Shown here: positions 44,303 to 63,404 of the stretch, in pieces
Layout: each line of letters starts with the position of its first letter
Numbering within the stretch: position 1 is the first letter of the stretch
Origin: Pantoea vagans
GTDB taxonomy: Bacteria; Pseudomonadota; Gammaproteobacteria; Enterobacterales; Enterobacteriaceae
Assembly: GCF_001506165.1 (NCBI RefSeq)
Contig: NZ_CP011427.1
Location: 310,001-374,000 of the forward strand
Length of the DNA: 64,000 nucleotides
Reading direction: 5' to 3'
Notes under the pieces: generated by a model
The model's database searches: none
Told to the model about the DNA's origin: nothing
What the model saw: only the letters and a program-made list of their open reading frames with translations
Program-made: the position numbers and the translations under genes

Positions 44303-44497
44303 GCGCAAATGCGCAATAAATTGCACCGCGACGGTTGGGGAGCATGTTGATGCCATCACTGGCTGCAGCGCAAATGCGCAATAAATAGCGCCGCTACGGT
44401 TGGTGAGCATATTGATGTCATCACTGGCTGCAGCGCAAATGCGCAATAAATTGTGCCGCGACGGTTGGGGAGCATATTGATGCCAACACTGGCCGCA
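44303..44497 (+). repeat. Three tandem copies of a 65-bp repeat
   Basis: gcgcaaatgcgcaataaa begins copies at 44303, 44368 and 44433, a period of exactly 65. Each copy continues with gacggttggggagcat, ttgatgcc and cactggctgcag; copies differ by a few substitutions. It starts just after the cyclase stop codon. No open frame. No spacers, so not CRISPR. Confidence 0.85.
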
Positions 44498-44521
44498 GCA
44501 ATGACCATGCTAAAAGCCCCG

Positions 44522-45844: not shown

Positions 45845-46240
45845 TGCTGTTGATCCGTTTGCGGTAAAGCGAGTGGGTAAGATAGCACGGTGATTAGAGG
45901 CATCAACAGCGCGGGTAACCGGACCGAGGTGTCTTTAACCCAACCTAAACGAAAGCGCTATTCAGAGTAGCCATAACAGGGTGCGGGGTTTAGAATCCCG
46001 ACGAATTTTTACCCATGAGGATAAAAGCCTTGGACACCTGTCCCGAACGATTACAAAAGGTCCCTGCGGTAAGATAGCCCTCTACGCTGTCTTAACCGTG
46101 CGTTAAGACGGTGGATTTCCTTCCTGAATCTTCCCCTCTTTTTTGGCGTGATGCTGCTGAATTTCAGCGGTAATGGCACCGGCTGTAATCCATTTATTAC
46201 CCCTTGATGTTCCGTCACCTGAAGTGGCGGAGTGAGGTTT
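45845..46240. other. Long leader upstream of the mgtC-like gene
   Basis: About 390 bases with no gene. It holds a PhoP-box-like direct repeat (45936-45950, read on the minus strand as gttta-ggttg-ggtta), a perfect 8-bp hairpin gtcttaac/gttaagac (46089-46109), and a hairpin ccgtcac/gtggcgg (46212-46230) just before the ribosome site. The length and folding potential suggest a regulated 5' leader, as mgt genes often have. Confidence 0.5.
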
Positions 46241-46948
46241 ATGATGGATTGGAAAATCTTTTTACTGCGCGTCACTGTCGCGCTGGTTCTGGGCGCGCTG
46301 ATTGGCAGCGAGCGCCAGCTTCGCCAACGTATGACTGGTTTACGCACCAATGCGCTGGTCAGCACCGGCGCGTGTTTATTCGTATTGATGACGCAAAGCG
46401 TTCCCGGCATCGCCACCGATGCCTCCCGCGTCGCGGCCTATGTGGTCTCCGGTATTGGCTTTCTCGGCGGCGGCGTGATCATGCGTGATGGGCTCAACGT
46501 ACGCGGCCTGAACACTGCCGCAACTCTGTGGTGCACCGCCGCCGTGGGCGTGTTGTGTAGCATGGGATTGCTGCTGGAAGCGGCAATCGGCTGCATGGTG
46601 ATCCTGTGTGCCAACATTTTATTGCGGGATCTGGCGCAAGGGATCAATCGCCAAAGCCTGGTGCCTGCTGAAGAGGTGGTGCAGCACTACAAAGTGCAGA
46701 TCATCTGTCTGGCGCAGGATGAAGTGCAGGTGCGAAGCCTGATGCTGCACAGCCTCGGCGGCAGCGGTTTACGCCTGCAATCACTGCACAGCGAGGATAT
46801 GGATCCGCCACACCGTATGGAGGTGAATGCCGAAGTGCTGGGGAAACCGAGCATGACGGATCAGCTGGAAAATCTGGTGGGCAGGATCAGTCTGGAGAAG
46901 GGTGTGAGTTCGGTGCGGTGGCAGGTTTGTGGATTGGAAGGGGAGTGA
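46241..46948 (+). CDS. MgtC/SapB-family membrane protein
   Basis: A 235-residue protein with four or five N-terminal membrane helices holding the MgtC signature LGALIGSERQLRQRMTGLRTNALVSTGACLF and GIGFLGGGVIMRDG, then a soluble ACT-like C-terminal domain (about 145-235). MgtC-type proteins act in low-Mg2+ adaptation and restrain F-ATP synthase in Salmonella; short homologues such as YhiD are of unclear role. ATG 46241 or the next ATG (46244) follows gagg; a GTG at 46232 is also in frame. The C-terminal domain is complete. Confidence 0.88.
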   Translation: MMDWKIFLLRVTVALVLGALIGSERQLRQRMTGLRTNALVSTGACLFVLMTQSVPGIATDASRVAAYVVSGIGFLGGGVIMRDGLNVRGLNTAATLWCTAAVGVLCSMGLLLEAAIGCMVILCANILLRDLAQGINRQSLVPAEEVVQHYKVQIICLAQDEVQVRSLMLHSLGGSGLRLQSLHSEDMDPPHRMEVNAEVLGKPSMTDQLENLVGRISLEKGVSSVRWQVCGLEGE

Positions 46949-47637: not shown

Positions 47638-48458
47638 ATGACTGATGATGACGGCTTAACTGTAGCACTTTCGCCTGTGCAGCTTGCGGCCATTTTACGC
47701 AGAGGAACCGTGAGTGAAGGTGAGACACTCAGTAACCGACTTTGGGGTGGGGTGGGGTGGGGGTTTTAGGAGGTGTCGCTGAAATTTTTGGCGCAGGCGT
47801 TTTGTGTGTTGTACCTGAGCCAACTATGTTAACGAAAGCTGGATGTGTGGTGGTGGGTTCTCATAGTCTAGATACGCTGAATACCTCAATTAAACAGCTT
47901 TGGACAGGGCACCGCATGGAAACGGCAACGGCACAGCTTGCAGAAAAAGCAGCAAGTCAATTTGGTGCGAATCCTGAGATGGCTTACAAGATAGGTGCGA
48001 CAGTTGATCTAATTGTACCTATTGGCTTCGCCTCGCTAGCAGGAGCATCACGAGTCGCATCTATTTATTCAGGGCGCATCAGGTTGATGGAACATGAGGG
48101 TGGGTCTTTAGGGCATACGATTGCCCGCCATGTTGGCAGGACTCCAGAACAGCTTATCGCTCGCTTCTCTGAACCTCGTGCCCCCCATATTTCCAGCAGT
48201 TTTGGGAGTCTCAGGCAAGCTGAGTTGGTTATTTCTGAAGTGCTGTCAGTTAAGAGTAAGCAGATGGAATATGCTTTAAAGTATTCACATGCTCGCACTA
48301 CACTTGTTTATGCTCACAAGTTTAATTTCCCGATTGGCACTTACATTGATCGAGGGGCTACTGAGGTTAAGAAGGCTTACAGCGTCCGTATTGTCATCAG
48401 GCCAGCAACTTTCAATGGCAAACAGTACTATCTTGTCACCGCATTCCCAACGCCGTAA
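47638..48458 (+). pseudogene. RNase A-like (CdiA-CT type) toxin gene, frame broken at a GGGGT tract
   Basis: The start is ATG 47638 (TDDDGLTVALSPVQLAAIL, then TLSNRLWGG). After about 38 codons the frame ends at TAG in a (GGGGT)3GGGGG tract; the rest, from 47742 on (GGVAEIFGAGVLCVVPEPTM to the C terminus AFPTP), is in another frame. Removing one GGGGT unit restores LWGGVGVLGGVAEIF exactly. The C-terminal 130 residues resemble bacterial RNase A-like CDI toxin domains, with GHTIARHVG, the SSFGSLRQAE helix and KFNFPIGTYID. The immunity gene follows. It is either a pseudogene or a phase-variable OFF state. No long CdiA scaffold is present. Confidence 0.75.
47744..47763 (+). repeat. GGGGT repeat / G-quadruplex tract
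   Basis: Four runs of at least four G separated by single T bases (GGGGT three times, then GGGGG). It is the point where the toxin reading frame is lost. It meets the textbook pattern for a stable G-quadruplex with single-base loops. Confidence 0.9.
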
Positions 48459-48466
48459 GGAGCCAT

Positions 48467-48805
48467 ATGGATACTGATATGACAAAATCCTGTGAGATGG
48501 ATACGCTCGTCGTCGCTTACTTTGGCCAAGATTGCGATCTTATTGATCCTGATTGTAATTTCAATAACCTCTTAAATGATTATCTCTCTACCGCACCAGT
48601 TTTCAATTTAAGAATGCTGCTAGCGAACATACAAGAATTTGAACAAGAATCTGACAGTCTTCAGATTTTTTCTGAACGGTATAAGTATGATTTTGCGCCA
48701 GATAGATGGGATATGACGGCAGTAGAATGGTTAAGTGTTGTTAAAAAGAGAGTTGTTGACCACCTTCATAATAATGGGCACTCCTCTGAATTATCGGCAT
48801 TTTGA
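48467..48805 (+). CDS. Probable immunity protein to the RNase A-like toxin (CdiI type)
   Basis: A 112-residue acidic protein (FGQDCDLIDPDCNFNNLLNDYL, FSERYKYDFAPDRWDMTAVEWL) of the kind annotated as contact-dependent growth inhibition immunity proteins. It has an excellent ribosome site (aaggag) and starts nine bases after the toxin gene, the normal toxin-immunity order. While the toxin frame is broken the immunity gene remains intact, so the cell would still be protected against sibling toxin. Confidence 0.7.
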   Translation: MDTDMTKSCEMDTLVVAYFGQDCDLIDPDCNFNNLLNDYLSTAPVFNLRMLLANIQEFEQESDSLQIFSERYKYDFAPDRWDMTAVEWLSVVKKRVVDHLHNNGHSSELSAF

Positions 48806-48886
48806 TGCTGATGCGTGGGGGGAGAGAGGGCGGTACTTTGCTAATGAAGACTTTATGAGCATCGCTGTGTGCTGATTAATGGGCAC

Positions 48887-48935
48887 ATTCACCATTCACC
48901 ATTCACCCTTCACCCTTCACCCTTCACCCTTCAGC
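48887..48935 (+). repeat. Seven tandem heptanucleotide repeats
   Basis: Three ATTCACC units, three CTTCACC units and a final CTTCAGC. It is a simple-sequence array downstream of the immunity gene. Confidence 0.9.
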
Positions 48936-49150
48936 CTCTTCTCTCTGTAGTGGGAAAACCTCTGCGCATTGAAATCGCGTGCGAGCGGATCGCAAATACA
49001 CACAAAAGCATGGTTCATGGCTAATTGGCGTTTTAAATCGTCTTTCAAGGTAATGCCATGGGCGCCATACCATACGTCAACCAGCCCTCTCAACTTACAT
49101 CTGTCTTCTTTTTCTTCCTGCCACGGATTCTGTGCGGTTGTACCGTTCAA
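48917..49150 (-). pseudogene. Uncharacterised gene fragment
   Basis: A frame of 77 codons with protein-like composition (WYGAHGITLKDDLKRQLAM, VCICDPLARDFNAQRFSHY). It begins only with TTG (49150), without a ribosome site, and runs into the heptanucleotide array at its 3' end. I do not recognise the family. The rest of 48806-49559 also looks like broken accessory DNA; other frames there (for example 49095-49370) carry short stretches of similar character. Confidence 0.35.
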
Positions 49151-49559: not shown

Positions 49560-50609
49560 ATGGCTAACGATGATAAGACTTTAAACTTATTTCCTATAGA
49601 TTATCCATTTGAAACGTTATGCTCAAGGATGGAATCAAATCCTGTTAAGTTGAAATTAAATCCAGACTTTCAAAGGAAGTATAAATGGGATCAGGATGGA
49701 TGGCAGCGATCTTCAAAATTTATTGAATCTTGCTTAATGAGAATACCTCTTCCATCCTGTTATTTTGCAGAGGAAAACGATGGTAATCATATTGTTATTG
49801 ATGGAGTTCAACGTTTAACTACTATACAGAAGTTCTTTAATGATGAATTTTCCTTGGAAGGAATGACTACCTTTAAGGAATTAGAGGGTAAAAAGTTTTC
49901 TGAGTTAGGAAGTTTACGGTCTGAGCTTGAATCAACCACGATTAGATGCATTGTATTACGTAAAGAAAATCCCAAAGCTCTAATACGAGAAATATTTTCG
50001 CGATTAAACCAGGGCGCGGTAAAACTTTCTGATCAAGAAATTAGACATGCGTTATATCCAGGAGGTTTCGACGATTTACTAAATGAACTGGGGGGCATTG
50101 AAGCTATAAAAAACTTTGGATTAGCAGAAACAACTACTGTAAAAAGAGATAGTCGTGAACCTGATGAACAAGTTTTACGCTTCTTTGCCTTTTACGATGA
50201 TGGTTTTGCAGAGCACTTTAATAATACACTGAAAGATTTTTTAGATGATCAAATGGAGACGTTTTCGACTCTGGAAGAAGATCGTTTAAATGAGATGCGT
50301 GAGATTTTTAAATCATCTCTTCAGAAATGTGAAAAAATATTTGGCGATGATACTTTCACAAACCCCACTGTTAGAAGAAAAAGAAAAGGGTTGGTACATT
50401 ACGACATATTGATGCCTACTATAGGTAAATTAAGTGATGAAGTTGTAAATGATAAGGCTGAGAATATACGTCAGGCTTGGGAAGACTTATGCTCCAGCAA
50501 TGAATTTAAAAGAACTTTATCTGGAGGGTTGCAAAACAAAAGCTCTGTAATTAGGCGGAGAGATAGTTGGACGAAACTTCTGAAGGAAGTTACTGATGGA
50601 AAAGACTGA
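49560..50609 (+). CDS. DUF262 (GmrS/ParB-like) protein
   Basis: A 349-residue protein whose first 180 residues are the DUF262 domain: NPDFQRKYKWDQDGWQRSSKFIESCLMRIPLP, then the ParB-like nucleotide motif IDGVQRLTTIQKFF (DGQQR with V in place of the first Q) and FSRLNQGAVKLSDQEIRHALY. DUF262 is the N-terminal nucleotide-cleaving part of GmrSD type IV restriction enzymes and of the SspE antiphage protein. No C-terminal DUF1524 HNH nuclease is seen here. It overlaps the HEPN gene by 14 bases. Much lower GC than the core. Confidence 0.85.
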   Translation: MANDDKTLNLFPIDYPFETLCSRMESNPVKLKLNPDFQRKYKWDQDGWQRSSKFIESCLMRIPLPSCYFAEENDGNHIVIDGVQRLTTIQKFFNDEFSLEGMTTFKELEGKKFSELGSLRSELESTTIRCIVLRKENPKALIREIFSRLNQGAVKLSDQEIRHALYPGGFDDLLNELGGIEAIKNFGLAETTTVKRDSREPDEQVLRFFAFYDDGFAEHFNNTLKDFLDDQMETFSTLEEDRLNEMREIFKSSLQKCEKIFGDDTFTNPTVRRKRKGLVHYDILMPTIGKLSDEVVNDKAENIRQAWEDLCSSNEFKRTLSGGLQNKSSVIRRRDSWTKLLKEVTDGKD

Positions 50610-51183
50610 GTGTTTCGAACGCTATCGTTTATTGTTTCTTTCGTTGAAAGAAATCGTTAATGAAACCGAGAGAAATACATTACGTGAAGAAGTCGACTTT
50701 TTTAACAAAAATATAAACTTTTTTGTCAAGTCGTATCTTATCACTTTGTGTACTTATCTGGAATCATACTTATCTGACGCTGCTGAATGGCATTGTGATA
50801 GAATTAACAACAAATTAAAGGCAGCTTCCTTACCTCATAATTTTTTACTTTGGCGAGTCAAAAAAGATTTCAAAGATAAAGAGCTTAAGTATATTGATGC
50901 TGATTTAAAAGTTTATAAAAGTGAATTGTCAGATAATTTATCTGGAAACCCATATAAAACAATAAAGACATTTTCCTACTTGGGTTTAAACCTTATTGGT
51001 TCTAATGACTTCAACTTGAATAAAGATATTGTTAATGCAATAGTTACAAAAAGAAATAATATTATTCATCACAATGATCACGCTAATGATATTAGTCTGT
51101 CAGATATAAAGGGTTATATTGATATTTTCATAAGTTATATACAGATCATTGATAGTGTGATATGCAAAAACAACCAAGTTTAA
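50596..51183 (+). CDS. HEPN-domain protein (MAE_28990/RiboL-PSP-like), partner of DUF262
   Basis: A 195-residue helical protein with the HEPN ribonuclease motif Rx4-6H in TKRNNIIHHND (about residue 152-160). An N-terminal helix includes LITLCTYLESYLSDAA, typical of MAE_28990/18760-like HEPN proteins. HEPN proteins of this kind are toxins or effector RNases in defence and toxin-antitoxin systems. The ATG lies inside the end of the DUF262 gene, so the two are made in a fixed ratio. Activity is inferred from the motif only. Confidence 0.75.
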   Translation: MEKTECFERYRLLFLSLKEIVNETERNTLREEVDFFNKNINFFVKSYLITLCTYLESYLSDAAEWHCDRINNKLKAASLPHNFLLWRVKKDFKDKELKYIDADLKVYKSELSDNLSGNPYKTIKTFSYLGLNLIGSNDFNLNKDIVNAIVTKRNNIIHHNDHANDISLSDIKGYIDIFISYIQIIDSVICKNNQV

Positions 51184-51418
51184 ATCCGTGATTGTAATTT
51201 GGGCCAGTACTCTGGCCCTTTGTTATTTCATTTGGATTAGGGTAAATTAAATTATTTATGGCTAGAGCAATGGTGGCTATTATTCACTGTGCGAGTTTAG
51301 GTGTGCTATTAAATTTTTTATAAATTACATATTTTTAATTTTATTACATAACGGAATAATTATATTGACACGCCAAAAGAACACTTGAAATTTGGTGGGC
51401 TTATACTACTCACTCACT
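51184..51418. other. Gap after the HEPN gene
   Basis: An AT-rich stretch with no gene. A weak hairpin with gggccag...ctggccc (51199-51220) followed by tttgttatttc probably terminates the DUF262-HEPN transcript. Confidence 0.5.
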
Positions 51419-51642
51419 TGACCGGCCCCCAGTATTAGATACAACGATCAGTTAGTAATGTCGGTTTGTTTACTTTCTAATTTTCCATTTCTCCAGCTTG
51501 CTGCAAATTCAGTCGACGTCTGGTAATTCAGCGATGAATGAGGTCTGGACTCGTTATAGTCCTGCCGCCAGTCATTAATGATTTTCCGGGCATGAAGAAT
51601 ATCGCTGAACCAGTGTTCATTCAGGCATTCATCCCGAAGTGA
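51419..51642 (-). mobile_element. IS3-family transposase remnant (OrfB C terminus and one IS end)
   Basis: On the minus strand about 64 codons encode SLRDECLNEHWFSDILHARK, then IINDWRQDYNESRPHSSLNY and so on to TDITN and stop at 51448: the C terminus of an IS3-family DDE transposase (the final glutamate region NESRPHSSL). The outer sequence tgaccggcccccagtattag (51419) is the terminal repeat. The other 90% of the element is missing. Confidence 0.88.
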
Positions 51643-51729
51643 CTTATGAAGACATTACTAACATCGCGGTGTATTAAGCAACGGGAAGCAAGTCAGTTGT
51701 AGTCGCAGGTGATAAATTTTTTCAGCAAT

Positions 51730-51764
51730 GGCCTTTCTTATGGATGGAAAGGCCTTATTTTTTG
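51730..51764 (+). terminator. Intrinsic terminator of a lost plus-strand gene
   Basis: A ggcctttc/gaaaggcc stem (51730-51737, 51747-51754) followed by ttattttttg. Just upstream, a plus-strand frame ending TYEDITNIAVY and TAA (51643-51678) looks like the tail of a gene removed by the IS3 remnant. Confidence 0.7.
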
Positions 51765-51869
51765 TATTCACCGTGTCACTATAATGCAGTTAGAAAACTC
51801 TATTCAGGTATGTCTCAGATAACGGAGTAGTGGACGATAAGCTCTGGCATTATTTTGGACAAAAACGTG

Positions 51870-54452
51870 TCAAACGGGAGACTCGCAATTTGGACATTTG
51901 ATATTAATCGATGACATGGGCATCAAGGACAAGTAGGTCCAGTACTCTCCATTTTTGATAAGCCTCGTATTGCAAGAGCCACAATGGGTATAAACCGTAA
52001 ATTGTGTGCAATCATTGCACCGATACCAACGCTTTTCTTTGTTAGAGCGTATTGGATTAGAAATGTCTTCAACGTCTGGTGAGCCACAAGAAACACAGAA
52101 ATTCACGGCATGAGTATCATCCGATGCTCCTCGTAAAGAAGAGTTATCTTCAATGCCATACTGTAGAAACATGCCAAGCATACGCTGAATTTCGTCAAGA
52201 TAGCGTTGCGACTTCATTGGATTGGCACACACCGCCCCATAGCTTGTTGCTTGGCGTCCGTGATACGCATGTTCCCAATCGAACATGGAAAGCTCGCCCA
52301 GATAACTGTTTTTCGCCCATTCCTGCGGGGATACAATTTTCTCCACTGCCTCTAACACGGGATGAAGAACAAATACGCTGTTCTCTTGGCCTTCGCTATA
52401 ATCCTTGTCACTGTAAAGTTCATGGATAACGCCACCGATTCCACCTCTTTGCTTGAGATATGTAGCTGAATAATACTTTGCATCAACGACTAGCCGCTTT
52501 GAAATCTGCTCACCACTTTTGGTGGTCGCTTTCACATCCAGAACAAAATCTGGGCGCTTACCATTGTCTAGAAACGGCTCGTATTGCAAAGTAATCGCTC
52601 TGGAAACACTTGGGTTGAAAAACTGAATGCTGATTTGTTCTTCATTGCCATGAATATGCGAAATTAATTTTCGTTTCCAGTTGTCCTCCGGCTGATATCG
52701 CAAAGCATGAGTTAACACCTTAATGATTTGAAGTAAACACCAGCGCTCATAGAGTAGTGGCATGTTTATCATGCCTATTGCCTCGATCTTCTCCAGCGAA
52801 AGCAAAATGTCCTCATCTGCTAGACCAATCTGTTCTTTCAAATTTTTAAAACCTGAGTAGACCGCTTGGTAGGGAGGGTTCTGTACAAATGTCATGGAGT
52901 TGGGAAAGGTACTTTTACTTGTGACTTTGCATTGACGCCATTCTTTCTCTAGTTGTTGGAAAGGTTTTATTTTTGGCTCCAGAACTTTGCTTACTATTCC
53001 CACTTTTTTAAGTTCAGTGGCAAAGTAACCCAAGCGTTTATTGATGGTCGAACGCTCTTTTTCCTGTTCAGAGAGCTCTTCCGGTGTTAGCTTCATTTTC
53101 CAATTATTTTCATTTAGAACAATACCTTGCTTGCGCAATTTGGCAAAATTTTCTTTATATCTCTGCAGTGATGGCGAATCCGCCAAAAGAGTTAATCGGA
53201 GTATGTGCTTTGGGCGCAATATAGAAGCTGTTCCTCTCTTAGCAGGTGCAGGCATTATCGCTTCCATCTCATAGTCACTGTAAGGCTTAAACAAGCTTGA
53301 GTACGGGCTTCCAGAGCTAAAAATAGTATATCTATCTTGCTCAAACTGTTGCCAATCATCACTTAGTTGGGGCTTAATTTTAGCCCACCACTCATTCTCA
53401 GAACCTGTAGCTTTTTCTAATCTGAGGTAACCTTTGGCGGCAATATTTTGTGAAAAGTACATATTGGTCTTAATTTCATCTAATTTGTTCGCTAATTCTT
53501 TATTGATTTCTTTTGTATCAAAGAGTTTTTTCAACCGCTCTAAGTCTTTAACCACTAGATCACGGTTGATAGAGCGATAGTTTTTTAAACTTTCTAAACG
53601 CTCATTAAGCTTGTCGACGGCATCAGAGAAACGACTTTTTTTACTCTCAGCCACCCTAACCAATTTTTTTACAATGTTCAGCGTGTTCGAAACGACATGC
53701 AAGACATATTGATTTTCAGGCACGTTGTAGCTTGGCTCAGATGCGCGACTGGTTAAATGGTTACGCGATCCCTTAGTGCAAATCTCCATAAACGTACGTG
53801 GAACAGGGCGTACTTCTTTGGTCGGCTTCAATTCTTGAATTTCTTTCAGCTCAACTTTGGGCTTTTTGAGGATTGTTTGTACATTAGTCAGAATAGATGC
53901 GACCAGTGACAAAGCCTTTTGATCTATGGTCGCCACCAGAGATTTTTTAGCGTCGCCCGTAATATGGCTATTCTCATCGAGAATCAACTCCCACAGGTCT
54001 GCTTTGAAATCTGATAGGTAGCGAGAAAGGTCTGATTTGGTCTGTTCGGAGATATCAATATCAAGCTTTAGCGTTGAGTTACCAACAACAAACGTGATCT
54101 GGCCAGCAGTTCGCCGCGCCTCACTGCGCCAGACCCGTTGTTTTTTATCCCAATGAGCAGGTTCAACCCACCACACAGAATTAGAAGCAGGATCAATAAT
54201 CGACTCTAAAGGCTTCCTCTCGCCATTGGGCATTGCAATATAAGGCGGTGACTTGTCGCCGTGTTTAGCTTTAATCGCTAGTTGAGCAAATCGTAGCTCT
54301 TCGACCTTGGGGTATATGATCGTATGCGCAGAGAACGTGTTGTTTCCAAGATGCTCAAGCTTCAGCGAGTACTCTGACTCGTTAACACTGACTAAAGTTT
54401 GCTTATCATGCCATTTGGTTTCGATAAACTTGATAATGAATGGAACGTCCAT
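51870..54452 (-). CDS. DUF2357 PD-(D/E)XK nuclease with zinc ribbons (McrC-like)
   Basis: An 860-residue protein. The N-terminal DUF2357 region covers about 1-330 (SVWWVEPAHWDKK, ENQYVLHVVSNTLN), followed by a coiled middle (260-380) and a PD-(D/E)XK nuclease with RPDFVLDVKAT (about residue 636) and LVVDAKYYSA (about 658), that is D-x-AK. The last 80 residues have four CxxC pairs (CVSCG, CNDC, CGSC, CPNC), giving two zinc ribbons. It starts two bases after the McrB-like gene, so it is the nuclease subunit of an McrBC-type machine. No other role is supported. Confidence 0.85.
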   Translation of the reverse strand: MDVPFIIKFIETKWHDKQTLVSVNESEYSLKLEHLGNNTFSAHTIIYPKVEELRFAQLAIKAKHGDKSPPYIAMPNGERKPLESIIDPASNSVWWVEPAHWDKKQRVWRSEARRTAGQITFVVGNSTLKLDIDISEQTKSDLSRYLSDFKADLWELILDENSHITGDAKKSLVATIDQKALSLVASILTNVQTILKKPKVELKEIQELKPTKEVRPVPRTFMEICTKGSRNHLTSRASEPSYNVPENQYVLHVVSNTLNIVKKLVRVAESKKSRFSDAVDKLNERLESLKNYRSINRDLVVKDLERLKKLFDTKEINKELANKLDEIKTNMYFSQNIAAKGYLRLEKATGSENEWWAKIKPQLSDDWQQFEQDRYTIFSSGSPYSSLFKPYSDYEMEAIMPAPAKRGTASILRPKHILRLTLLADSPSLQRYKENFAKLRKQGIVLNENNWKMKLTPEELSEQEKERSTINKRLGYFATELKKVGIVSKVLEPKIKPFQQLEKEWRQCKVTSKSTFPNSMTFVQNPPYQAVYSGFKNLKEQIGLADEDILLSLEKIEAIGMINMPLLYERWCLLQIIKVLTHALRYQPEDNWKRKLISHIHGNEEQISIQFFNPSVSRAITLQYEPFLDNGKRPDFVLDVKATTKSGEQISKRLVVDAKYYSATYLKQRGGIGGVIHELYSDKDYSEGQENSVFVLHPVLEAVEKIVSPQEWAKNSYLGELSMFDWEHAYHGRQATSYGAVCANPMKSQRYLDEIQRMLGMFLQYGIEDNSSLRGASDDTHAVNFCVSCGSPDVEDISNPIRSNKEKRWYRCNDCTQFTVYTHCGSCNTRLIKNGEYWTYLSLMPMSSINIKCPNCESPV

Positions 54453-54454
54453 GA

Positions 54455-56629
54455 TTATGCCCAGTAGTTTACAACGCCATCATTTGCTTCGGCTGTCTTA
54501 ACCAAACGCTCTACCGATTTGGTGCATGAAAACTCCGCCGCAATCTCTGTCTGATTATCTAAAAGGGATTCAAGACGAGGTAAGAATACACGGCCAACAA
54601 GCTCAACTTTACTGTAATCGCCCACTTGCTTACCGCCATCAAACGTGAATTTAGGCAACACCTTATGAACGATAAAGTTGTTAATGGCCAGAGATTTATT
54701 GTCGTTTACATCGCTAAACAACCTTATGTAGTTAAGCCCCTGACGAATGGTACGCATACCAAACTCCACTCCAAGCGGGTCGAAAACCTCTCGATTTAAG
54801 GTGGTGAACAGCTCACAGAATTCATCCGAACGTTCAAATTTCGGATAAGGGCTACGTTCGCCAAGCTCTGCAATATCGAACCCAAGTGGCAAATTGACGT
54901 CATCAAGGCCATAAGAATCGATCTCATCAAAAATTGCATCCCAGTCTGTCAGTAAAGGGCTCTTAAACTTCATCACATGCGCACGATCGAGAATTTTTGG
55001 TGATAGGTAATGGGTAGTCTCGTCGATGTTAATTGCACCAATGATCCTAACGTTTGCTGGAATCGTGATAGACGAAGGTGTGCCAAGAACACCTGCCAAC
55101 ATGCGTCTGATGTCACCATGGTATTTAATTAACGAATCTTTGTCGCTAAAGCCAAACGAGCGCTTCATTTCAGCGTTAATCTCTTCATCCTGCAGGAGCG
55201 CAACGAAGTCCACGATGCCATTTTTACTGAATTTTTCTTGTGCGTTTGAAATGACCGAAACAACCCCTTTTAGCTCTGCAAGAACATGGGCTGCTTCATC
55301 ATCCGAATAAAGCTGAATCGTCGGTTGCTCGTTACGCTCCTCTAGCTTGGATAGAAAATCGGCAAAGTAATATTCCACTCGGGCAAGGTTCATTTCGTCT
55401 AAGCAGATAAAGTATGGGATATCTGGGTTTTGCTTGGCCTCGATTAATGCCTCAAGAAATGGCGTAGCTAGGTATTTCTTCTCTAGTGGGTTGTAATAGC
55501 CCAGCAAGTCTTCTGAACTGGTCCAGTTTGGTTTAACTGGGATGATTTTCGATACTCCACCAATCGCTTTAGCAAACGACTGAACTAGGTTCGTTTTGCC
55601 TGAACCCGAATCGCCTGCCAAAATGATAAGGTCATTTGTGCGAATTAGAGTAAGGAAATTCTCGATGATATGGCGCGGGTACAGAATGTCTCGTTCTTTC
55701 AAGTGTGCTTGAATGTAAGAAACTGCATTACTGTATTTAGAGTCAAGAGTTTGTGAAAAGGAGATATGTTTGCCTTGCTGTGCTGCAGATGAACGATTGC
55801 CTACAAAAATATCGAAATCTTCATCATCCAGAAATTCAAAGCTCTTAAGGAATAGAGCCTTACTCTCGACATAAGCTTTCAAGCGTTCAATTTTTTTTGA
55901 CATCGTCTCTTCTACCTTCTTTTGCAACGCGATTTTGCGTAGCCATTCTGTATTTTTTTCTTCCAACTCTTGAGTTTTAACTCTTGCTTGAGAAAGAATA
56001 TTATTATTTTTATTTAATTCTTCTTGTGTTTGCTGAAGCAGAACTTCATATGATGATATCTGCGCCTTTAATGAAGATTCTTCTCGCTCGAATTCTGCTT
56101 TTAGCGCACTGACTTCGCCGTCAATTCTTGACTGAACGTTCTGTAAATGCAGTTTATAAACAGCATCATCTAAGAAAATACTTTCATCGCCGTTGATGAT
56201 GTCATTCGCCCTATATTCAGGAAGTTTGATAAGTCGACGAACTGAACTCACTACCACATTGCATTCAAATGGGTTTTCATGTTTTTCACGCTCGGATTGA
56301 GGCGCTAAAGCAAGCTCGCATGAGATAAAACTCTCATCATCTATACCAAACAACTCTTCGACGCTTTTGAAAGAAATAAAAACACCTTTGACCATGGCCA
56401 AACGAACATTGATTGGGTATTCAAGGTGCAGCCCTGTTTGGAGGGATTTTATATCTAGAAGAAGTGTCGGGAGCTTTCGGTCATCAAAGTTTGTTCGATT
56501 TTTAATCTTGCCCCAAACTGCTAGTTTTCCGCTAGTTGAACCCCAGCTCTCACACAGTCGTCGATAAAGCTCTTCATCAGAGAATCCTTTAACTTCTTCA
56601 GGATCATAGATAACTTGTTCTAAAGCCAT
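54455..56629 (-). CDS. McrB-like AAA+ NTPase with N-terminal coiled coil
   Basis: A 724-residue protein. An unknown N-terminal domain (about 1-170) is followed by a long coiled coil (about 175-265, VSALKAEFEREESSLKAQIS) and a McrB-type AAA domain with Walker A AGDSGSGKTN (about 340), Walker B FICLDEMNLARVEYYF, and the GAINIDETTH signature that corresponds to the MNTAD element. McrB proteins bind nucleotide, form hexamers and drive an McrC nuclease along DNA or RNA. The coiled coil is like that of the CoCoNuT class of type IV systems. It is the first gene of the pair; no third gene is seen. Confidence 0.85.
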   Translation of the reverse strand: MALEQVIYDPEEVKGFSDEELYRRLCESWGSTSGKLAVWGKIKNRTNFDDRKLPTLLLDIKSLQTGLHLEYPINVRLAMVKGVFISFKSVEELFGIDDESFISCELALAPQSEREKHENPFECNVVVSSVRRLIKLPEYRANDIINGDESIFLDDAVYKLHLQNVQSRIDGEVSALKAEFEREESSLKAQISSYEVLLQQTQEELNKNNNILSQARVKTQELEEKNTEWLRKIALQKKVEETMSKKIERLKAYVESKALFLKSFEFLDDEDFDIFVGNRSSAAQQGKHISFSQTLDSKYSNAVSYIQAHLKERDILYPRHIIENFLTLIRTNDLIILAGDSGSGKTNLVQSFAKAIGGVSKIIPVKPNWTSSEDLLGYYNPLEKKYLATPFLEALIEAKQNPDIPYFICLDEMNLARVEYYFADFLSKLEERNEQPTIQLYSDDEAAHVLAELKGVVSVISNAQEKFSKNGIVDFVALLQDEEINAEMKRSFGFSDKDSLIKYHGDIRRMLAGVLGTPSSITIPANVRIIGAINIDETTHYLSPKILDRAHVMKFKSPLLTDWDAIFDEIDSYGLDDVNLPLGFDIAELGERSPYPKFERSDEFCELFTTLNREVFDPLGVEFGMRTIRQGLNYIRLFSDVNDNKSLAINNFIVHKVLPKFTFDGGKQVGDYSKVELVGRVFLPRLESLLDNQTEIAAEFSCTKSVERLVKTAEANDGVVNYWA

Positions 56630-57028
56630 GATTGAATCGCCACTGATAACTTAGATATATCTCATTCATTGATGATATTGGTTTTAATATTCGATCGGTG
56701 ACACCTTATCGCTCAAAGCATGCCTACGCTTACTGTTACAAAGCATTTTGATGTAATCGAAAAGATCGCATCGACCTCCGGTAAGTGTCAAGGTAGTTGA
56801 CACTCATTAGTTAATCTAAGCTGTCTGTTTTCCCCGCTACGGATTCAAAGTCACAGGACCTTCCGGTTGCCAGTTTCTTGTTCTCCCTGAATCGCATTCA
56901 AGATGCGCTTTCTACGCCCGACTATACAGTTCATCACGTCGTTTCGGTAAGTCACAGTCTTACACATGACGCCGCTCTTACCAACCCATAAACTTATCCG
57001 CAGATATCTTCCAGCGTTCTGAACCCCC
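56630..57028. other. Promoter region of the McrB-like gene and debris
   Basis: About 400 bases without a supported gene. It includes an 8-bp perfect palindrome agtgtcaa/ttgacact (56784-56804), a possible operator, and downstream of it sequence that appears to be transposon debris. Confidence 0.45.
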
Positions 57029-57235
57029 ATGACGGCTATCGAGGCACATATTTCAGTGTCCGGAGCAGCGACTTCGCATACTACCAACAGCCATGTTTTA
57101 ACCGATTCAGTTATGCCTGAACTTAATAAGTGGCAGCAACACTCGCGGGAGAGAGTTTACTCCTCCGTCAGGCTGGATGCGATTCATAGTAAAATCCGCA
57201 AAGATGGCCGGTATCAGAGTAAGGTGACTTTGTAG
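57029..57235 (+). pseudogene. IS256-family (mutator) transposase remnant
   Basis: From about 57098 the frame reads LTDSVMPELNKWQQHSRERV, then SSVRLDAIHSKIRKDGRYQSKV: the IS256-type block that precedes and includes a catalytic aspartate (LDAI). The protein ends at a stop soon after and neither end of the element is evident. Confidence 0.7.
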
Positions 57236-57238
57236 TGA

Positions 57239-57421
57239 GAAGATAACGGGCGTCTGTCGAGACTGCTTTGTGATGTGCTGTCGGTTATGGCGGGGAAGGG
57301 CTTACTGGATTACAGCCTGTGGGATGAGCACAAGGCATTTTACTTCAAGGCAATACAGGCTGGTGTATCAGGGAACTACAGCCCGATGATGCAACTGGTG
57401 GACGACATCTTGCCAAACTAG
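57239..57421 (+). pseudogene. Probable Fic/Doc gene remnant (C-terminal end)
   Basis: The 60-codon frame EDNGRLSRLL to VDDILPN with GLLDYSLWDEHKAFYFKAIQAG resembles the C-terminal helices of Fic proteins. It is in the same frame as the IS256 remnant, separated by TAG TGA. It has no start, and the Fic motif HPFxxGNGR is missing, so it is not functional. The identification is from memory of the family tail and only moderate. Confidence 0.45.
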
Positions 57422-57425
57422 CGTG

Positions 57426-57584
57426 CTAGCGTGCGAGGCCAACAGCTTTTGCCTGTACTGGATTTTGTTTGAGTTGCTGCTCAATTTTTTGCACTGAAAA
57501 ACCTGTCTCAATAGCGGTTGAGCTGGCAACAGAACGGTATATCTGTGCTTTGGTAATCTGAGATGGTGCTGTTTCTTGTCTCAT
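57426..57584 (-). CDS. Small protein of 52 residues, unknown
   Basis: A minus-strand frame starting MRQETAPSQITKAQIYRSVA and ending QAKAVGLAR, helical and polar, with a good ribosome site (gagga) and a palindrome (ttgtagt-tgt-actacaa, 57612-57628) 28 bases before its start. The size, operator-like palindrome and neighbouring Fic remnant recall an antitoxin, but I cannot name the family. It lies downstream of zorD in the same direction. Confidence 0.5.
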   Translation of the reverse strand: MRQETAPSQITKAQIYRSVASSTAIETGFSVQKIEQQLKQNPVQAKAVGLAR

Positions 57585-57611
57585 TAGCAAGTCCTCGCCA
57601 TGTTTTCAGGA

Positions 57612-57628
57612 TTGTAGTTGTACTACAA
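57612..57628. promoter_or_regulatory. Operator-like palindrome upstream of the 52-residue gene
   Basis: ttgtagt and actacaa are exact inverted copies with a 3-base spacer, positioned in the promoter of the small gene. Confidence 0.5.
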
Positions 57629-57673
57629 TGTGCTGGCAAGGTTAATGAAAGGCTAGATAGTAAAACGCGGAGA

Positions 57674-57697
57674 CACCAGCCGCTTATTGGGCTGGTG
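57674..57697 (-). terminator. Possible terminator after zorD
   Basis: The 8-bp stem caccagcc/ggctggtg lies 24 bases beyond the zorD stop on the minus strand; a modest T-run (gttttac) follows. Confidence 0.45.
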
Positions 57698-57720
57698 GCG
57701 TGGTTAGCATTTAGCGGTAT

Positions 57721-60700
57721 TTAAATCGAAGGTTTTCTGGCAACAACAGCCTCAAAATCAGCACCACTCAAATCAGGGGTTGCACACAGCATATCCCTGG
57801 CCAATGCACGTCGGCGCTGCAGTAGGTCATCCAGAGTTTCTTCAAAAGTAATGATTTCAGAGTCCCTTACCGTCGGGTAATAGACATATACGTCTTTAGT
57901 TTGCCCAATTCGGTACGCCCGGTCCGTTGCCTGATCTTCTTTGGCTGGATTCCAGCAGCGAGTGAAATGAATAACATGATTGGCTTTCTGGACGTTAACG
58001 CCGAACCCGACAGCAACCGTAGAGAGAATAATTACCCCAAACCCGGGCTGAGCCTGAAAATCATCAATCAGGCGCTGTCGGCTGTTTTGGCTTTGACTTT
58101 TAGTACTGGTATCACCATTGATAATGACAGGGCGGAAACCAAACTTTTGGTGGATAGCATGTTGAAGTTCGCGCTGTAAATCTCGAAGCTCCGTAAAAAT
58201 AATGACTTTATCTTTCGTGGTGTGTTTTATTTCTGCGAGTATTTTCAGCAGCCAATTCAGCTTGGGTGAGTTATCACGAAAACGTGGCTCTGGATTAACT
58301 ACTGCAGGGTGTGCACAGATGAGTTTCAGTCGGTGTAACAAACCTAACATACCGGTTCCGGCCTGCTGCATCCCTTCACTCAGGGCTTGCTGCTGTTGCC
58401 AGTTTGCAACAGACGAAAGGTAGAGCTGTTTTTGCACGCCAGACAACGTCAATTGCTTGCAGCTTTCCACTTCAATTTTCTGAGGTAAATCACGCGCAAC
58501 CTCTTCTTTAGTGCGGCGTAAAGTCTGGGGGTCTATCAGCGCCCGCAGGCTTTCCAGCCGTTCCGTATCGCGACCATCTTCGTTTTCGATGGGGCGAACA
58601 TAATGTTTACCAAATTCATTTAGTGCACCTAACAATCCAGGCTGGGCAAAATCAAATAAGCTCCACAGGTCGACAAGTGTGTTTTCGACAGGCGTTCCTG
58701 TGCATGCCACTTTGAATCTGGCTTGTACCGCGTTGGCCGCATGTGTAATTAATGCAGCTGGGTTTTTTATTTTTTGTGCCTCGTCGCACACCATAATGGA
58801 CCACGGCTGGCGTGCCAGAGAAAACTCCTGGTCGCGAAGCGTTTCGTAGGTTGTCAGTATGATTTTCGCCTCGCCCTGCCAGCCAGGTTTAAGCAGGTTT
58901 TTGATCCCCTGAGACTGCAGATGAGCAGGTATAGCCTGTTTGGGGTATTTCACCGCTTTAATGGTCTCGCCATACAATTTCAATACCGGAATTCCTGCGG
59001 TATAGAAGAAATTGTCCAGCTCACGTTCCCAGTTATCTAAAAGAGAGACAGGAGCAACAATGAGACTTGGCGGTTCTTGTGGGAATTTTTCAATGAACCA
59101 GACCAGGAAACTCAGGATTTGCAGCGTTTTCCCCAGACCCATATCATCCGCCAGTAAGCAACCTGCCGTTTCCTGTGGTGAGAGAAGAAAGAGTTGCTGG
59201 AGCCACGCAACACCCTTCCGCTGATGATCTTTGAGCTGGATATGTTCTTTCAGACTTAGGGGAATTTCAGGCTCGGCATGACGCGCATTGAGGAGCGAAT
59301 CCCGGCGCTGTTTGATGTAGGCCGCTTCTTCAATATTCTGTTCAATTTTAAGGACGGCCCGAGCCGCTTTAACATCAACATTGCCCTGTGATTCATTTGC
59401 CGTATTTTGCTGTTTTTCCCAATTCTTACTGAAGGTTTTAGCCGCATCCAGTGGTAATTCAGCATCATTCCAAGGGGAGATGATATGCGTTTCACCAGCT
59501 GCTTCTGCCTGAATGATTCTTTCCTGCAGTTCATCGAGATGGTGCAGGTTTTCAGGCTGCCAGCCATCCAGTGTTTCGACCGAAAATGTAGAGAAATCGA
59601 TGTCATCGGGGAGCCAATTTTCACTTTGCGCTTTGGTCAGCCAGGGAGATGATATTTTTTCGAACTCGCCAATACCGATAACACGATCGCCATATTTATC
59701 GATATCGAGAACATCATCGAATTCTTTACCTTCGATTTCCTGTTGCCAGCGAGATAATAGTGACTGGCAATAATGCCATTGCTGTTCGGTGAATTGGCTC
59801 AGTTCCAGCTCGTAACCCTGCCAGGAGCCTGCAGGCATTTGTGCCGCAACACTGATTCCCAATGCCTGAACAAATTTATCCAGCTCCCAAGGGGCGGAAA
59901 AGAGGAAGGTGACTTCCGGTTGTGGTACTGGCGAAACGGGCTCCAGAACCAACGTAATATCCTCTATCTTGTTCTCATCATTTAGACGGGGCTGGAGTCT
60001 AAAGTGATGGAAGAAAATATGGGCATCAAAGAGTGCCTGTTCATGCTCTTCAGGGGCAATCACGCTAGCGGCATCTTCACCCAGGAATGTGTAGGGGTTG
60101 CGAACAAATGACAGAGCTTCACTTCCGGCTACTCGGCGGCCTGGAATGGAGTGTATTAAATTCAGGACTTCTTTCACTTCGGGAGGAATGATGACGTGGC
60201 TGAGTTCGCCATTTTCGCCGGGGATTCGATAGCTATCGTGAACCTGCGAATTCTTGTCAAAACTGCCCAGCCAGTTAGCAGGCTGGTCCTCGAAATGGGG
60301 CTCAATTTCGATAACCGCAGTATCGGCAACCGTTGCTTTACGCAGACGTAATGACAATGAAGTTGGTTTGACGACATGCGTTTTTTCTAAATAATCATCA
60401 AATTTTGCCGCTGCTTGCTTTGCACATTTGCGGATAGCGGCCCATCCCAACTGATTAGTGGTTTCACCAGGAGTCTGACTCTGCTGTGCACTGAGTTGTT
60501 CTGTTGCCTGTATGAGTGCCCAGTTTTCCCGCGATAACAGGTATTGCTGATTTTCGTGGGTTAAAATGGCACCGGTACGACTGAAACGGATCGGCTTACG
60601 CGCTGGCAGCGTGGCCCATTCAGCAATCCAAACGCGAAAATCACTGTCGCTTAATGCCCCTCGCGAATTTAAACTTGCGCGTAATGGCAAAACCTCAGGG

Positions 60701-60972
60701 ACGCCAATCAGAGGCAGGCTACTGGCATGCTCTTCATCTTCCAACAGACGGTACAATGCATCCCAGCTCAACAACCACCGGTCTGTAAGTGATATCAGAT
60801 AGTCTTCTTCAGCCAGTTGTTCAAGCCAGGATGCCAGAGCCCAAAGCTCCGGCACATCAACCAGCGATAGCGGAAAGCTGAGTCCGTTATCCTCAACCTG
60901 GTATTGATTCTTTAGGTGGCGTTCTATCTGCTGACGGTTTCCCGTCAGTTTACTTAACAGGCGTTTGAGCAT
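57721..60972 (-). CDS. zorD: Zorya antiphage protein ZorD (SNF2-type helicase/nuclease)
   Basis: A 1083-residue protein; E. coli type I ZorD has about the same length. The N-terminal half is ZorD-specific. The SWI2/SNF2 ATPase occupies about residues 575-1050: LKDHQRKGVAWL, Walker A DDMGLGKT (about 612), DEAQ box VCDEAQKIKNP (about 729), LLHRLKLICAHP and motif VI region DRAYRIGQTKDV. In type I Zorya, ZorD is an autoinhibited nuclease/translocase recruited with ZorC when ZorAB detects a phage at the envelope. Its ATG overlaps the zorC stop by one base. The reading frame is intact. Confidence 0.92.
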   Translation of the reverse strand: MLKRLLSKLTGNRQQIERHLKNQYQVEDNGLSFPLSLVDVPELWALASWLEQLAEEDYLISLTDRWLLSWDALYRLLEDEEHASSLPLIGVPEVLPLRASLNSRGALSDSDFRVWIAEWATLPARKPIRFSRTGAILTHENQQYLLSRENWALIQATEQLSAQQSQTPGETTNQLGWAAIRKCAKQAAAKFDDYLEKTHVVKPTSLSLRLRKATVADTAVIEIEPHFEDQPANWLGSFDKNSQVHDSYRIPGENGELSHVIIPPEVKEVLNLIHSIPGRRVAGSEALSFVRNPYTFLGEDAASVIAPEEHEQALFDAHIFFHHFRLQPRLNDENKIEDITLVLEPVSPVPQPEVTFLFSAPWELDKFVQALGISVAAQMPAGSWQGYELELSQFTEQQWHYCQSLLSRWQQEIEGKEFDDVLDIDKYGDRVIGIGEFEKISSPWLTKAQSENWLPDDIDFSTFSVETLDGWQPENLHHLDELQERIIQAEAAGETHIISPWNDAELPLDAAKTFSKNWEKQQNTANESQGNVDVKAARAVLKIEQNIEEAAYIKQRRDSLLNARHAEPEIPLSLKEHIQLKDHQRKGVAWLQQLFLLSPQETAGCLLADDMGLGKTLQILSFLVWFIEKFPQEPPSLIVAPVSLLDNWERELDNFFYTAGIPVLKLYGETIKAVKYPKQAIPAHLQSQGIKNLLKPGWQGEAKIILTTYETLRDQEFSLARQPWSIMVCDEAQKIKNPAALITHAANAVQARFKVACTGTPVENTLVDLWSLFDFAQPGLLGALNEFGKHYVRPIENEDGRDTERLESLRALIDPQTLRRTKEEVARDLPQKIEVESCKQLTLSGVQKQLYLSSVANWQQQQALSEGMQQAGTGMLGLLHRLKLICAHPAVVNPEPRFRDNSPKLNWLLKILAEIKHTTKDKVIIFTELRDLQRELQHAIHQKFGFRPVIINGDTSTKSQSQNSRQRLIDDFQAQPGFGVIILSTVAVGFGVNVQKANHVIHFTRCWNPAKEDQATDRAYRIGQTKDVYVYYPTVRDSEIITFEETLDDLLQRRRALARDMLCATPDLSGADFEAVVARKPSI

Positions 60973-62654: not shown

Positions 62655-63391
62655 TAGGGCATTACCAACTGACAGACTTCTTTATTGACGACTGCGGGGA
62701 AATCCACCTCATCAGCCCCATCACGTTTATCTTTAAGTCCGAAGAATTGCATACGTAATTCGACACGACGGCTGGCTTCCTTGCTTTCCTTGGCATTATT
62801 GAAGGAGACGCCACCCGCGAGGAAAAGTTTACGGATTTGGATCTGCTGTTCTGCAGTTATGCTTTTTTGCAGCGGGCTGCGGCTATCGAGCAGACTACAC
62901 ATTACCCACTCAGAACGTTGCAAGGAGAGATGTAGATTGTATAAGTACGAACCGTCAGTGTCGGTAAACCCTTCAATAACGATCTGCTTAAACCACTTCT
63001 TGCCTTCTTCACTATCAGCTGCGTCCAGCACCAGGGGGACGACATCCTGCAACGCTTTTTGCCCTTCAGCGTTAAGGAAAAACCGGTTGTGATCGAAACG
63101 CCCGGCTTCACCAAAACTGATGCGATTATCGTGGCAATCCACCACGATAGTTTTGTTCACGTTACGGGCATGTATTTCCAGTCGCTCACACAATCTGGAT
63201 ATATCCTGACCTCTTGTTTTTTCACCCTGCTCTGCACGTTGGATACGTTGTGTAACGGAGCTCAACGAAGCAACCATGACGACCAGAAATAACACCATCA
63301 TGGCCGCCATCAGATCGGCATAAGAGATCCAGAATGGTTTCTCTGCTTCATCGCTGCGGCGTTTTTTAACGCCAAATGCGTTTCCAAACAT
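62654..63391 (-). CDS. zorB: Zorya antiphage protein ZorB (MotB/OmpA-like)
   Basis: A 245-residue MotB-like protein. The single membrane helix follows WISYADLMAAMMVLFLVVMV, with the ion-site aspartate at Asp26, as in E. coli ZorB. A periplasmic OmpA-like peptidoglycan-binding domain follows (EGFTDTDGSYLYNLHLSLQR, NAKESKEASRRVELRMQF). Two ZorB with five ZorA form a proton-driven rotary sensor in the inner membrane. It starts 13 bases after the zorA stop and overlaps zorC by one base. Confidence 0.95.
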   Translation of the reverse strand: MFGNAFGVKKRRSDEAEKPFWISYADLMAAMMVLFLVVMVASLSSVTQRIQRAEQGEKTRGQDISRLCERLEIHARNVNKTIVVDCHDNRISFGEAGRFDHNRFFLNAEGQKALQDVVPLVLDAADSEEGKKWFKQIVIEGFTDTDGSYLYNLHLSLQRSEWVMCSLLDSRSPLQKSITAEQQIQIRKLFLAGGVSFNNAKESKEASRRVELRMQFFGLKDKRDGADEVDFPAVVNKEVCQLVMP

Positions 63392-63404
63392 CAGCTGTCA
63401 CCCC

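What the first reader, a model, noticed from the sequence alone, without database searches (positions are those of the whole stretch)
47638..48805. RNase A-like toxin gene that can be switched by a GGGGT slippage tract
The toxin frame from ATG 47638 is lost at (GGGGT)3GGGGG (47744-47763); deleting exactly one 5-base unit gives LWGGVGVLGGVAEIF without any mismatch of frame, and the immunity gene downstream is intact. A simple repeat at the break point, in the 5' part of a toxin gene, is the classical layout of a phase-variable locus. The alternative is a simple fixed frameshift.
Basis: partly seen in the sequence, partly recalled or inferred. Interest (0 to 1): 0.75.

Follow-up and report, generated by a model that had tools for sequence, protein, structure and literature searches.

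The report
Freshly broken toxin gene beside immunity
A bacterium carries a bacteria-against-bacteria RNA-cutting toxin gene that has lost its reading frame at a short G-rich repeat while its protective partner gene stays open; relatives lose this toxin in many other ways and none that was examined has this repeat, so it looks more like a recent breakage than a built-in on/off switch.

Summary
ATG 47638 opens a toxin frame that ends at TAG 47767-47769, just past a perfect TGGGG x4 tract (47743-47762). The rest of the gene lies in another frame (ORF 47742-48458) with a complete bacterial RNase A domain (PF18431). A CdiI_2 immunity gene (48467-48805) follows, open. The tract is in 1 of 61 Pantoea genomes, this one, and in none of 72 other homologous loci scanned. 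The collinear Pantoea rodasii gene is intact (271 aa) without a repeat. Of 73 loci with this toxin architecture, 23 are broken or fragmentary, by lesions at many places. The frame after the tract was under purifying selection on this lineage until recently (16 of 19 polarised changes at third positions), so the break is young. Best reading: one recent slippage frameshift in a G-rich codon run silenced an interbacterial RNase toxin, immunity retained. Two facts pull the other way: four other copies have runs of 6-8 G at the same codons (one of them broken there), and the immunity gene has gathered more residue changes than the toxin on this branch. Reversible switching inside the species and an assembly error are not excluded; no reads and no second strain were held.

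The parts
47638..47769 (+). 5' piece of the toxin gene: 43 codons from ATG 47638 to the stop TAG 47767-47769, start of the N-terminal domain
   Evidence: Frame reading; 92.5% identical to residues 1-40 of the intact P. rodasii protein; no Pfam family by itself.
47743..47763 (+). G-rich pentanucleotide tract, TGGGG x4 and one more G, at which the frame is lost; the only place in the window with four runs of four or more G and loops of 1-7 bases
   Evidence: TRF, scans and shuffles, 1 of 61 genus genomes, G-run scan, 0 of 72 other homologous loci.
47742..48458 (+). 3' piece of the toxin gene in another frame: rest of the N-terminal domain and the whole RNase A-like domain (domain at 48111-48449)
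   Evidence: ORF; PF18431 profile 1-113/113; place of the domain; 5e3e match; 92% identical to P. rodasii residues 46-271.
48467..48805 (+). Open CdiI_2-type immunity gene, 112 aa, with TAAGGAG just before its ATG, at the toxin's stop codon
   Evidence: PF18593 E 1.7e-15; 87% identical to P. rodasii immunity; upstream letters printed.
46232..46948 (+). MgtC-like gene that marks the same chromosomal site in P. rodasii and P. rwandensis (neighbour, not part of the module)
   Evidence: 238-aa ORFs at the same place in L012 and L014; DNA search of the genus. The name MgtC is recalled.

Best explanation
This is a two-gene interbacterial toxin-immunity module: a small toxin (271 aa in the intact P. 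rodasii relative) with an uncharacterised N-terminal domain and a C-terminal RNase A-like domain, followed by a CdiI_2 immunity gene. In this genome the toxin gene has recently lost its frame inside a G-rich run of glycine and valine codons that had become a pentanucleotide repeat, most likely by one slipped-strand replication event. Ribosomes that start at the normal ATG stop after 43 codons, before the RNase domain, so no full-length toxin is expected, while the immunity gene keeps its own ribosome-binding site. The cell would be a non-producer that may still be protected from siblings or relatives with the intact toxin. Shown: both frames, tract, domains, intact relative, recent constraint on the toxin frame, repeated toxin loss in relatives. 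Inferred: slippage as the cause, loss of toxicity, continued immunity function, delivery route.
For: Collinear P. rodasii locus intact, 271 aa, no tract. Tract in 1 of 61 Pantoea genomes and in none of 72 other loci of this architecture. In its downstream frame the tract encodes the same residues as P. rodasii, differing only at synonymous positions. Toxin piece after the tract: dN/dS 0.066 against P. rodasii at dS 0.62; 16 of 19 polarised window-branch changes at third positions (P 7e-6 against 1/3): a recent break. Toxin state over 73 loci: 50 intact, 23 broken or fragmentary (genus 12 of 24 broken, family sample 11 of 49; counted by eye with 40, 61, and by script after correction of six rows, see Tried and rejected). 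Of 18 loci with immunity at least 50% identical the toxin is intact in 7, broken in 9, not found in 2. In print: immunity kept after effector displacement in V. cholerae (PMC5361080, abstract and section 13); tpsC cassettes with stops and frameshifts beside immunity ORFs in meningococci (PMC3848433, passages).
Against: The lesion sits exactly at a 4-unit repeat, which is what a switch would look like. The frame is young and otherwise perfect, which also fits an ON/OFF gene caught OFF or an assembly error. G-runs of 6 to 8 lie at the same codons in four other copies, so slippage there may recur. The immunity gene does not look better kept than the toxin on this branch: its polarised changes are 10, 3, 6 by codon position, against 1, 2, 16 in the toxin piece (Fisher P 0.0025), and 7 window-derived residue changes in 112 against 4 in 228, so it may be relaxed or adapting. 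From the toxin side, only 15 of the 23 broken loci have a recognised immunity match, 1 has one with a stop, 7 have none. The 18-locus set was found by immunity and is biased. Slippage itself was not observed.
Confidence: 0.68

Rival explanations
1. Phase-variable toxin: the tract gains and loses units often enough that a population holds both producers and silent but immune cells.
For: Repeat at the break point in the 5' part of the gene, far beyond chance; frame downstream recently constrained. Four other copies have G-runs of 6-8 at codons 35-42, one broken at or next to it. Of 9 single-lesion copies 6 break in the first 72 of 271 codons (cut-off chosen afterwards). A review passage says E. 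coli K-12 has no pentanucleotide repeats (PMC7015867, passage).
Against: No other homologous locus examined has the pentamer tract; intact homologues exist without it; most broken copies are broken elsewhere by ordinary lesions; about 4 units is short against known contingency repeats (recalled). No unit-number variation was seen, but no second allele was available.
Confidence: 0.15
2. Sequencing or assembly error in a G-rich repeat; the real gene is intact.
For: The frame is otherwise perfect and recently constrained; G-rich repeats are error-prone (recalled); one assembly only.
Against: The genome is one contig, completeness 100; three neighbours compared with P. rodasii (474, 238 and 112 aa) have the same lengths. 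Broken copies are common in the family, so a real break is unremarkable.
Confidence: 0.1
3. The 3' piece is still made, from an internal start or after re-initiation, as a shortened toxin held by the immunity protein, like a toxin-antitoxin pair.
For: 238-aa ORF with complete RNase domain, constrained; P. eucalypti and P. vagans plasmids also carry RNase-domain fragments next to immunity.
Against: In-frame starts TTG 47742 and ATG 47826 have no convincing ribosome-binding site by eye; promoter-like sites are at shuffle level (4 against mean 4.0); the plasmid fragments have a frame change or a stop inside; recency explains the constraint as well.
Confidence: 0.04
4. Programmed ribosomal frameshifting at the G-run, helped by a four-stranded G structure in the mRNA, yields some full-length toxin.
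For: Four runs of four or more G with single-T loops, the only such motif in the window, directly before the stop codon.
Against: No such site in P. rodasii; no classical X XXY YYZ heptamer in the zero frame by my reading; intact relatives need no shift; broken relatives differ in place and frame direction.
Confidence: 0.02

Closest known systems
CdiA-CT/CdiI of Yersinia kristensenii (PDB 5e3e; PF18431)
   Same: The C-terminal domain aligns over its whole length; three of four reported active-site residues (H175, R186, T276; list from PMC9086364 passages) align with the same residues here (numbering mapped by me).
   Different: The fourth, Y278, aligns with Phe, also in intact P. rodasii and in this genome's second copy. 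The gene is small and stand-alone, not the end of a giant two-partner exoprotein. The immunity protein found no significant PDB match (best E 0.12).
Stand-alone RNase A-like domain-containing toxins of Pantoea, Tatumella and relatives
   Same: Same N-terminal domain plus PF18431; CdiI_2-like immunity downstream in many loci.
   Different: The window copy is split in two frames at a pentanucleotide tract.
Orphan immunity genes left after effector loss (V. cholerae T6SS arrays, PMC5361080; meningococcal tps islands, PMC3848433)
   Same: Toxin lost or broken, immunity kept.
   Different: In the V. cholerae model the effector is displaced by a new module; here it is broken in place with nearly the whole gene left.
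Simple-repeat contingency loci (e.g. neisserial opa and siaD, recalled; siaD named in a reference seen)
   Same: Repeat at a frame break in the 5' part of a gene.
   Different: No evidence of unit-number variation, few units, pentamer tract not shared by the homologues examined.

Membership tests
Bacterial RNase A toxin domain (PF18431) | Profile match over the curated cut-off and full length | tested here: met
   92.7 bits against cut-off 27, profile 1-113/113
Bacterial RNase A toxin domain (PF18431) | Active-site residues reported for the Y. kristensenii toxin | tested here: inconclusive
   3 of 4 identical; the Y278 position is Phe here and in intact relatives
CDI (CdiB/CdiA/CdiI) system | Toxin as the end of a giant CdiA exoprotein with a CdiB transporter | tested here: not met
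   The intact relative is 271 aa; the largest ORF listed nearby is 860 aa and matches a defence family; CdiB was not searched for
CDI (CdiB/CdiA/CdiI) system | CdiI-type immunity gene directly downstream | tested here: met
   PF18593, 58 bits against 26.7
T6SS cargo effector | Delivery by a type VI machine | not testable with these tools
   Two TssB genes in the genome, nothing links them to this module
Phase-variable contingency locus | Repeat tract at which the frame is lost | tested here: met
Phase-variable contingency locus | Unit number varies between clones or strains | not testable with these tools
   No reads and no second strain of the species held
Phase-variable contingency locus | Tract shared by homologous loci | tested here: not met
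   Pentamer in 1 of 61 genus genomes and 0 of 72 other loci; but G-runs of 6-8 at the same codons in 4 of the 72
Orphan immunity gene after toxin loss | Open immunity gene beside a broken or missing toxin | tested here: met
   Immunity ORF open, toxin frame split
Orphan immunity gene after toxin loss | Immunity gene kept by selection after the loss | tested here: inconclusive
   Pairwise dN/dS 0.104, but 13 of 19 polarised window-branch changes at codon positions 1 and 2

The most novel reading that the evidence does not exclude
An interbacterial RNase toxin whose production is switched at random by a G-quadruplex-prone pentanucleotide repeat while immunity stays on, so that a clone holds producers and silent but immune cells; the switch would have evolved in this species by silent codon changes at a glycine-rich place where other family members carry plain G-runs.
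Probability: 0.11. Interest if true: 0.7.

Novelty: new member of a known kind. Interest (0 to 1): 0.27.

Why it matters
It is a freshly caught toxin loss beside an open immunity gene, with the intact version at the same site in a related species, in a family that is often broken in Pantoea (12 of 24 loci). If the tract did switch, it would be a rare example of a bacterial weapon turned on and off by a simple repeat while its antidote stays on.

Tried and rejected
Structure prediction of the intact P. rodasii protein as a single sequence gave mean pLDDT 36.7, unusable; no fold search was made. The N-terminal domain has no Pfam match at E up to 10. Phages by protein, viral contigs (1 pattern match, no relative) and complete E. 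coli genomes by DNA gave no relative. A lesion hot spot was considered: 9 copies have one lesion and both ends kept (window, G059 second and third, G043, G193, G146 at 1580674 and at 1359418, G268, G289; the last ambiguous); 6 break in the first 72 codons (P 0.014, cut-off chosen after seeing the data).

Limits of the counts. The 73 loci come (61 genomes; 392 genomes, the window's own and some genus genomes among them). One search scored at most 6 candidates a genome, so it undercounts: one more broken copy (G146 at about 3.212 Mb, seen through its immunity gene) is outside the 73. Seven loci with the RNase domain in other proteins were left out. The script printed 46 intact and 27 broken; six rows are wrong and were corrected by eye: five (G019, G000 second copy, G009, G418, G256 second) were called broken only because the query's own final stop was counted, and G001 second copy was called intact because its stretch holds the intact neighbour. 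This gives 50 and 23, the count by eye. Contig ends may make some fragments look broken. L079 and L133 are the same record as L013; L087 (immunity 40%) is outside the 50% set. Recognised immunity means a tblastn match to the window's, P. rodasii's or the second own immunity protein; other immunity families would be missed. One search scanned 66 loci with duplicates; one search rescanned the 73 for repeats of unit 4-9, of unit 2-3, and for single-base runs.

Literature: nothing held under PF18431; searches for repeat-switched toxin-immunity genes gave 2, 1 and 6 papers, of which I saw passages of three and the listing of the rest; none of what I saw is such a case.

Full report
What is there. 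At 47638-48805 the window holds a toxin gene in two pieces and an immunity gene. The first piece runs from ATG 47638 to TAG 47767-47769, 43 codons and a stop. The second is the ORF 47742-48458 in another frame, with a complete RNAse_A_bac domain (PF18431, E 3.6e-26) and similarity to the solved Yersinia kristensenii CDI toxin (5e3e, E 5.8e-10). The frame is lost at a perfect TGGGG x4 tract, 47743-47762, followed by one more G. The immunity ORF 48467-48805 belongs to PF18593 CdiI_2 and has TAAGGAG a few bases before its ATG.

Is it more than chance. In 100 dinucleotide shuffles of the window no tandem repeat of unit 4-9 with at least 3 copies and 18 bp appeared; the real window has four rows, this one and three others. 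The 19-base core of the tract is in 1 of 61 Pantoea genomes, at this place only (the reversed-pattern control is uninformative, because the pattern reads the same backwards). It is the only place in the window with four runs of four or more G and short loops, the textbook shape of a G-quadruplex (recalled). The residues here are glycine and valine, so G-rich codons are possible; with the window's codon usage the four codons of the core would be drawn with probability about 0.002.

The intact version. Pantoea rodasii LMG 26273 has the same locus with the same upstream neighbour, and there the toxin is one 271-aa ORF without a repeat. Read in its downstream frame, the tract encodes the same residues as P. 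rodasii, and the base differences are synonymous there. So the repeat seems to have grown by silent changes while the frame was in use. I say only that intact copies exist.

How old is the break. The piece after the tract has dN/dS 0.066 against P. rodasii at dS 0.62; the RNase domain alone 0.105, the immunity gene 0.104, the 35 codons before the tract 0.105. With three outgroup copies (one of them the broken T. ptyseos copy), 19 base changes could be placed on the window's branch after the tract: 1, 2 and 16 at codon positions 1, 2 and 3 (P 7e-6 against one third). On the P. rodasii branch it was 7, 3 and 10. Four residue changes are window-derived, six P. rodasii-derived, nine ambiguous. The toxin frame shows no decay: the break is recent, or the frame is still used at times, or it is not real.

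The immunity gene behaves differently. Its changes on the window's branch are 10, 3 and 6 by codon position (P. rodasii branch 0, 3, 5), with 7 window-derived, 2 P. rodasii-derived and 6 ambiguous residue changes of 112. The contrast with the toxin on the same branch has Fisher P 0.0025. So on this lineage immunity, not the toxin, has been changing. Relaxed constraint or adaptation would both fit; a bolder guess is that a drifting immunity protein made the toxin costly and favoured its loss. This weakens the step 'immunity still works'.

What relatives do. I searched 61 genus genomes and a family sample of 392 with the intact P. rodasii protein. Counting loci of this architecture or remnants of it, and leaving out 7 loci with the RNase domain in other proteins, there are 24 in the genus (12 intact, 12 broken or fragmentary) and 49 more in the family sample (38 intact, 11 broken or fragmentary); one search agrees after six rows are corrected (see Tried and rejected). 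One search was capped at 6 candidates a genome, so the family number is a lower bound. The lesions are diverse: a stop at codon 72 in Tatumella ptyseos, frameshifts near codons 37, 51, 53, 68 and 245, a stop near 195, an internal deletion in P. rwandensis at this very site, and loss of the N-terminal part on the P. eucalypti and P. vagans plasmids.

Repeats in relatives. In the 73 loci, repeats of unit 4-9 with 3 or more copies occur in the window only, and repeats of unit 2-3 with 4 or more copies in none. Runs of 6 or more G occur within the gene in 9 other copies, and in four of these they lie at codons 35-42, the place of the tract: G087 (8 G), G009 (7 G), G020 (6 G), all intact, and the third copy of G059 (6 G), whose frame break lies at or next to the run. 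This place therefore tends to be G-rich, and slippage there may have happened twice. It does not show switching.

Is immunity kept. The loci found with an immunity protein at least 50% identical to the window's number 18; the toxin is intact in 7, broken in 9 and not found in 2. This set was collected by immunity, so it cannot show how often immunity is lost. From the toxin side, all 8 intact toxins at least 58% identical to P. rodasii, itself included, have an open immunity ORF directly downstream (L105, L134 to L140). Of the 23 broken loci, 15 have a recognised immunity match, 1 (G446) has one with a stop inside, and 7 have none. So toxin loss with immunity kept is common but not the rule. 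The site beside the MgtC-like gene is variable: P. rodasii and P. rwandensis carry this module, G010 an immunity gene without a recognisable toxin, and G019, G038, G046 and G047 show no match to the module within the 1.5 kb looked at.

How it most likely works. Ancestrally a small toxin is delivered to neighbouring bacteria by an unknown route; the genome has two TssB genes of type VI secretion, but nothing ties them to it. The RNase domain would cut RNA in the target and the immunity protein would block it in kin, as reported for the Y. kristensenii pair (PMC9086364, passages). Three of four active-site residues are kept; the fourth is Phe also in intact relatives, so it is no sign of decay. 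Here the toxin is silenced early and immunity may still be made. The same genome keeps a second, intact, distantly related pair at 2.326 Mb and a third immunity-like gene at 0.861 Mb, with no toxin-like ORF listed beside it.

Switch or accident. For a switch speak the repeat at the break, the youth of the break and G-runs at the same place in four relatives. Against it speak the absence of the pentamer in all other loci examined, intact relatives without it, and frequent ordinary breakage of this family. The window genome is probably Pantoea 'rwandensis_B' ND04 or near it (one contig of 4.3 Mb, close to P. rodasii; my inference with PMC10665919 passages), for which that paper reports five sequenced strains; comparing those is the decisive step.

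Novelty. Broken or displaced toxins beside kept immunity genes are known: V. cholerae immunity arrays (PMC5361080, abstract and section 13) and meningococcal tps cassettes (PMC3848433, passages). Searches in open-licence papers showed no toxin of this type switched by a repeat, as far as listings and passages tell. I file it as a new member of a known kind, interest 0.27, and keep the bolder reading at 0.11.

Noticed in passing
window 48886-48937: A heptamer array (ATTCACC, then TTCACCC, about 7 copies) directly downstream of the immunity gene; three perfect units in a row occur in 2 of 61 Pantoea genomes, here and in G049.
   Followed up: partly
window 48467-48805: The immunity gene has gathered more residue changes than the toxin on the window's branch (7 in 112 against 4 in 228), the reverse of what a silenced toxin with a needed antidote would predict.
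   Followed up: partly
window 44303-44499: Three tandem copies of a 65-bp unit between the GGDEF-like gene and the ddl-like gene (gene names recalled).
   Followed up: no
window 49560-63962: Defence island beside the module: NsnA-like GmrSD_N gene with a RiboL-PSP HEPN gene, a PDC-M26B gene, then ORFs that look like an ATPase and like Zorya ZorA to ZorD (recalled, not tested).
   Followed up: partly
window 48923-49000: About 78 bp 83% identical to stretches annotated as integrase on a Salmonella and an Enterobacter plasmid, perhaps an integration scar.
   Followed up: no
L012 1985-3078: The ddl-like gene of the P. rodasii draft is split in two frames, while the window's copy is whole, 364 aa.
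   Followed up: no
L140, L108, L112, L131: Runs of 8, 7, 6 and 6 G at codons 35-42 of the toxin gene in G087, G009, G020 and G059 (third copy), the place of the window's tract.
   Followed up: partly
G059 contig C3 (L116, L131, L190): One genome holds three copies of the toxin family: one intact, one frameshifted near codon 37, one near codon 245.
   Followed up: partly
G292 contig C13 and G198 contig C15 (L150, L145): Several CdiI_2-like immunity matches in a row behind one toxin gene, like the immunity arrays described for V. cholerae.
   Followed up: no
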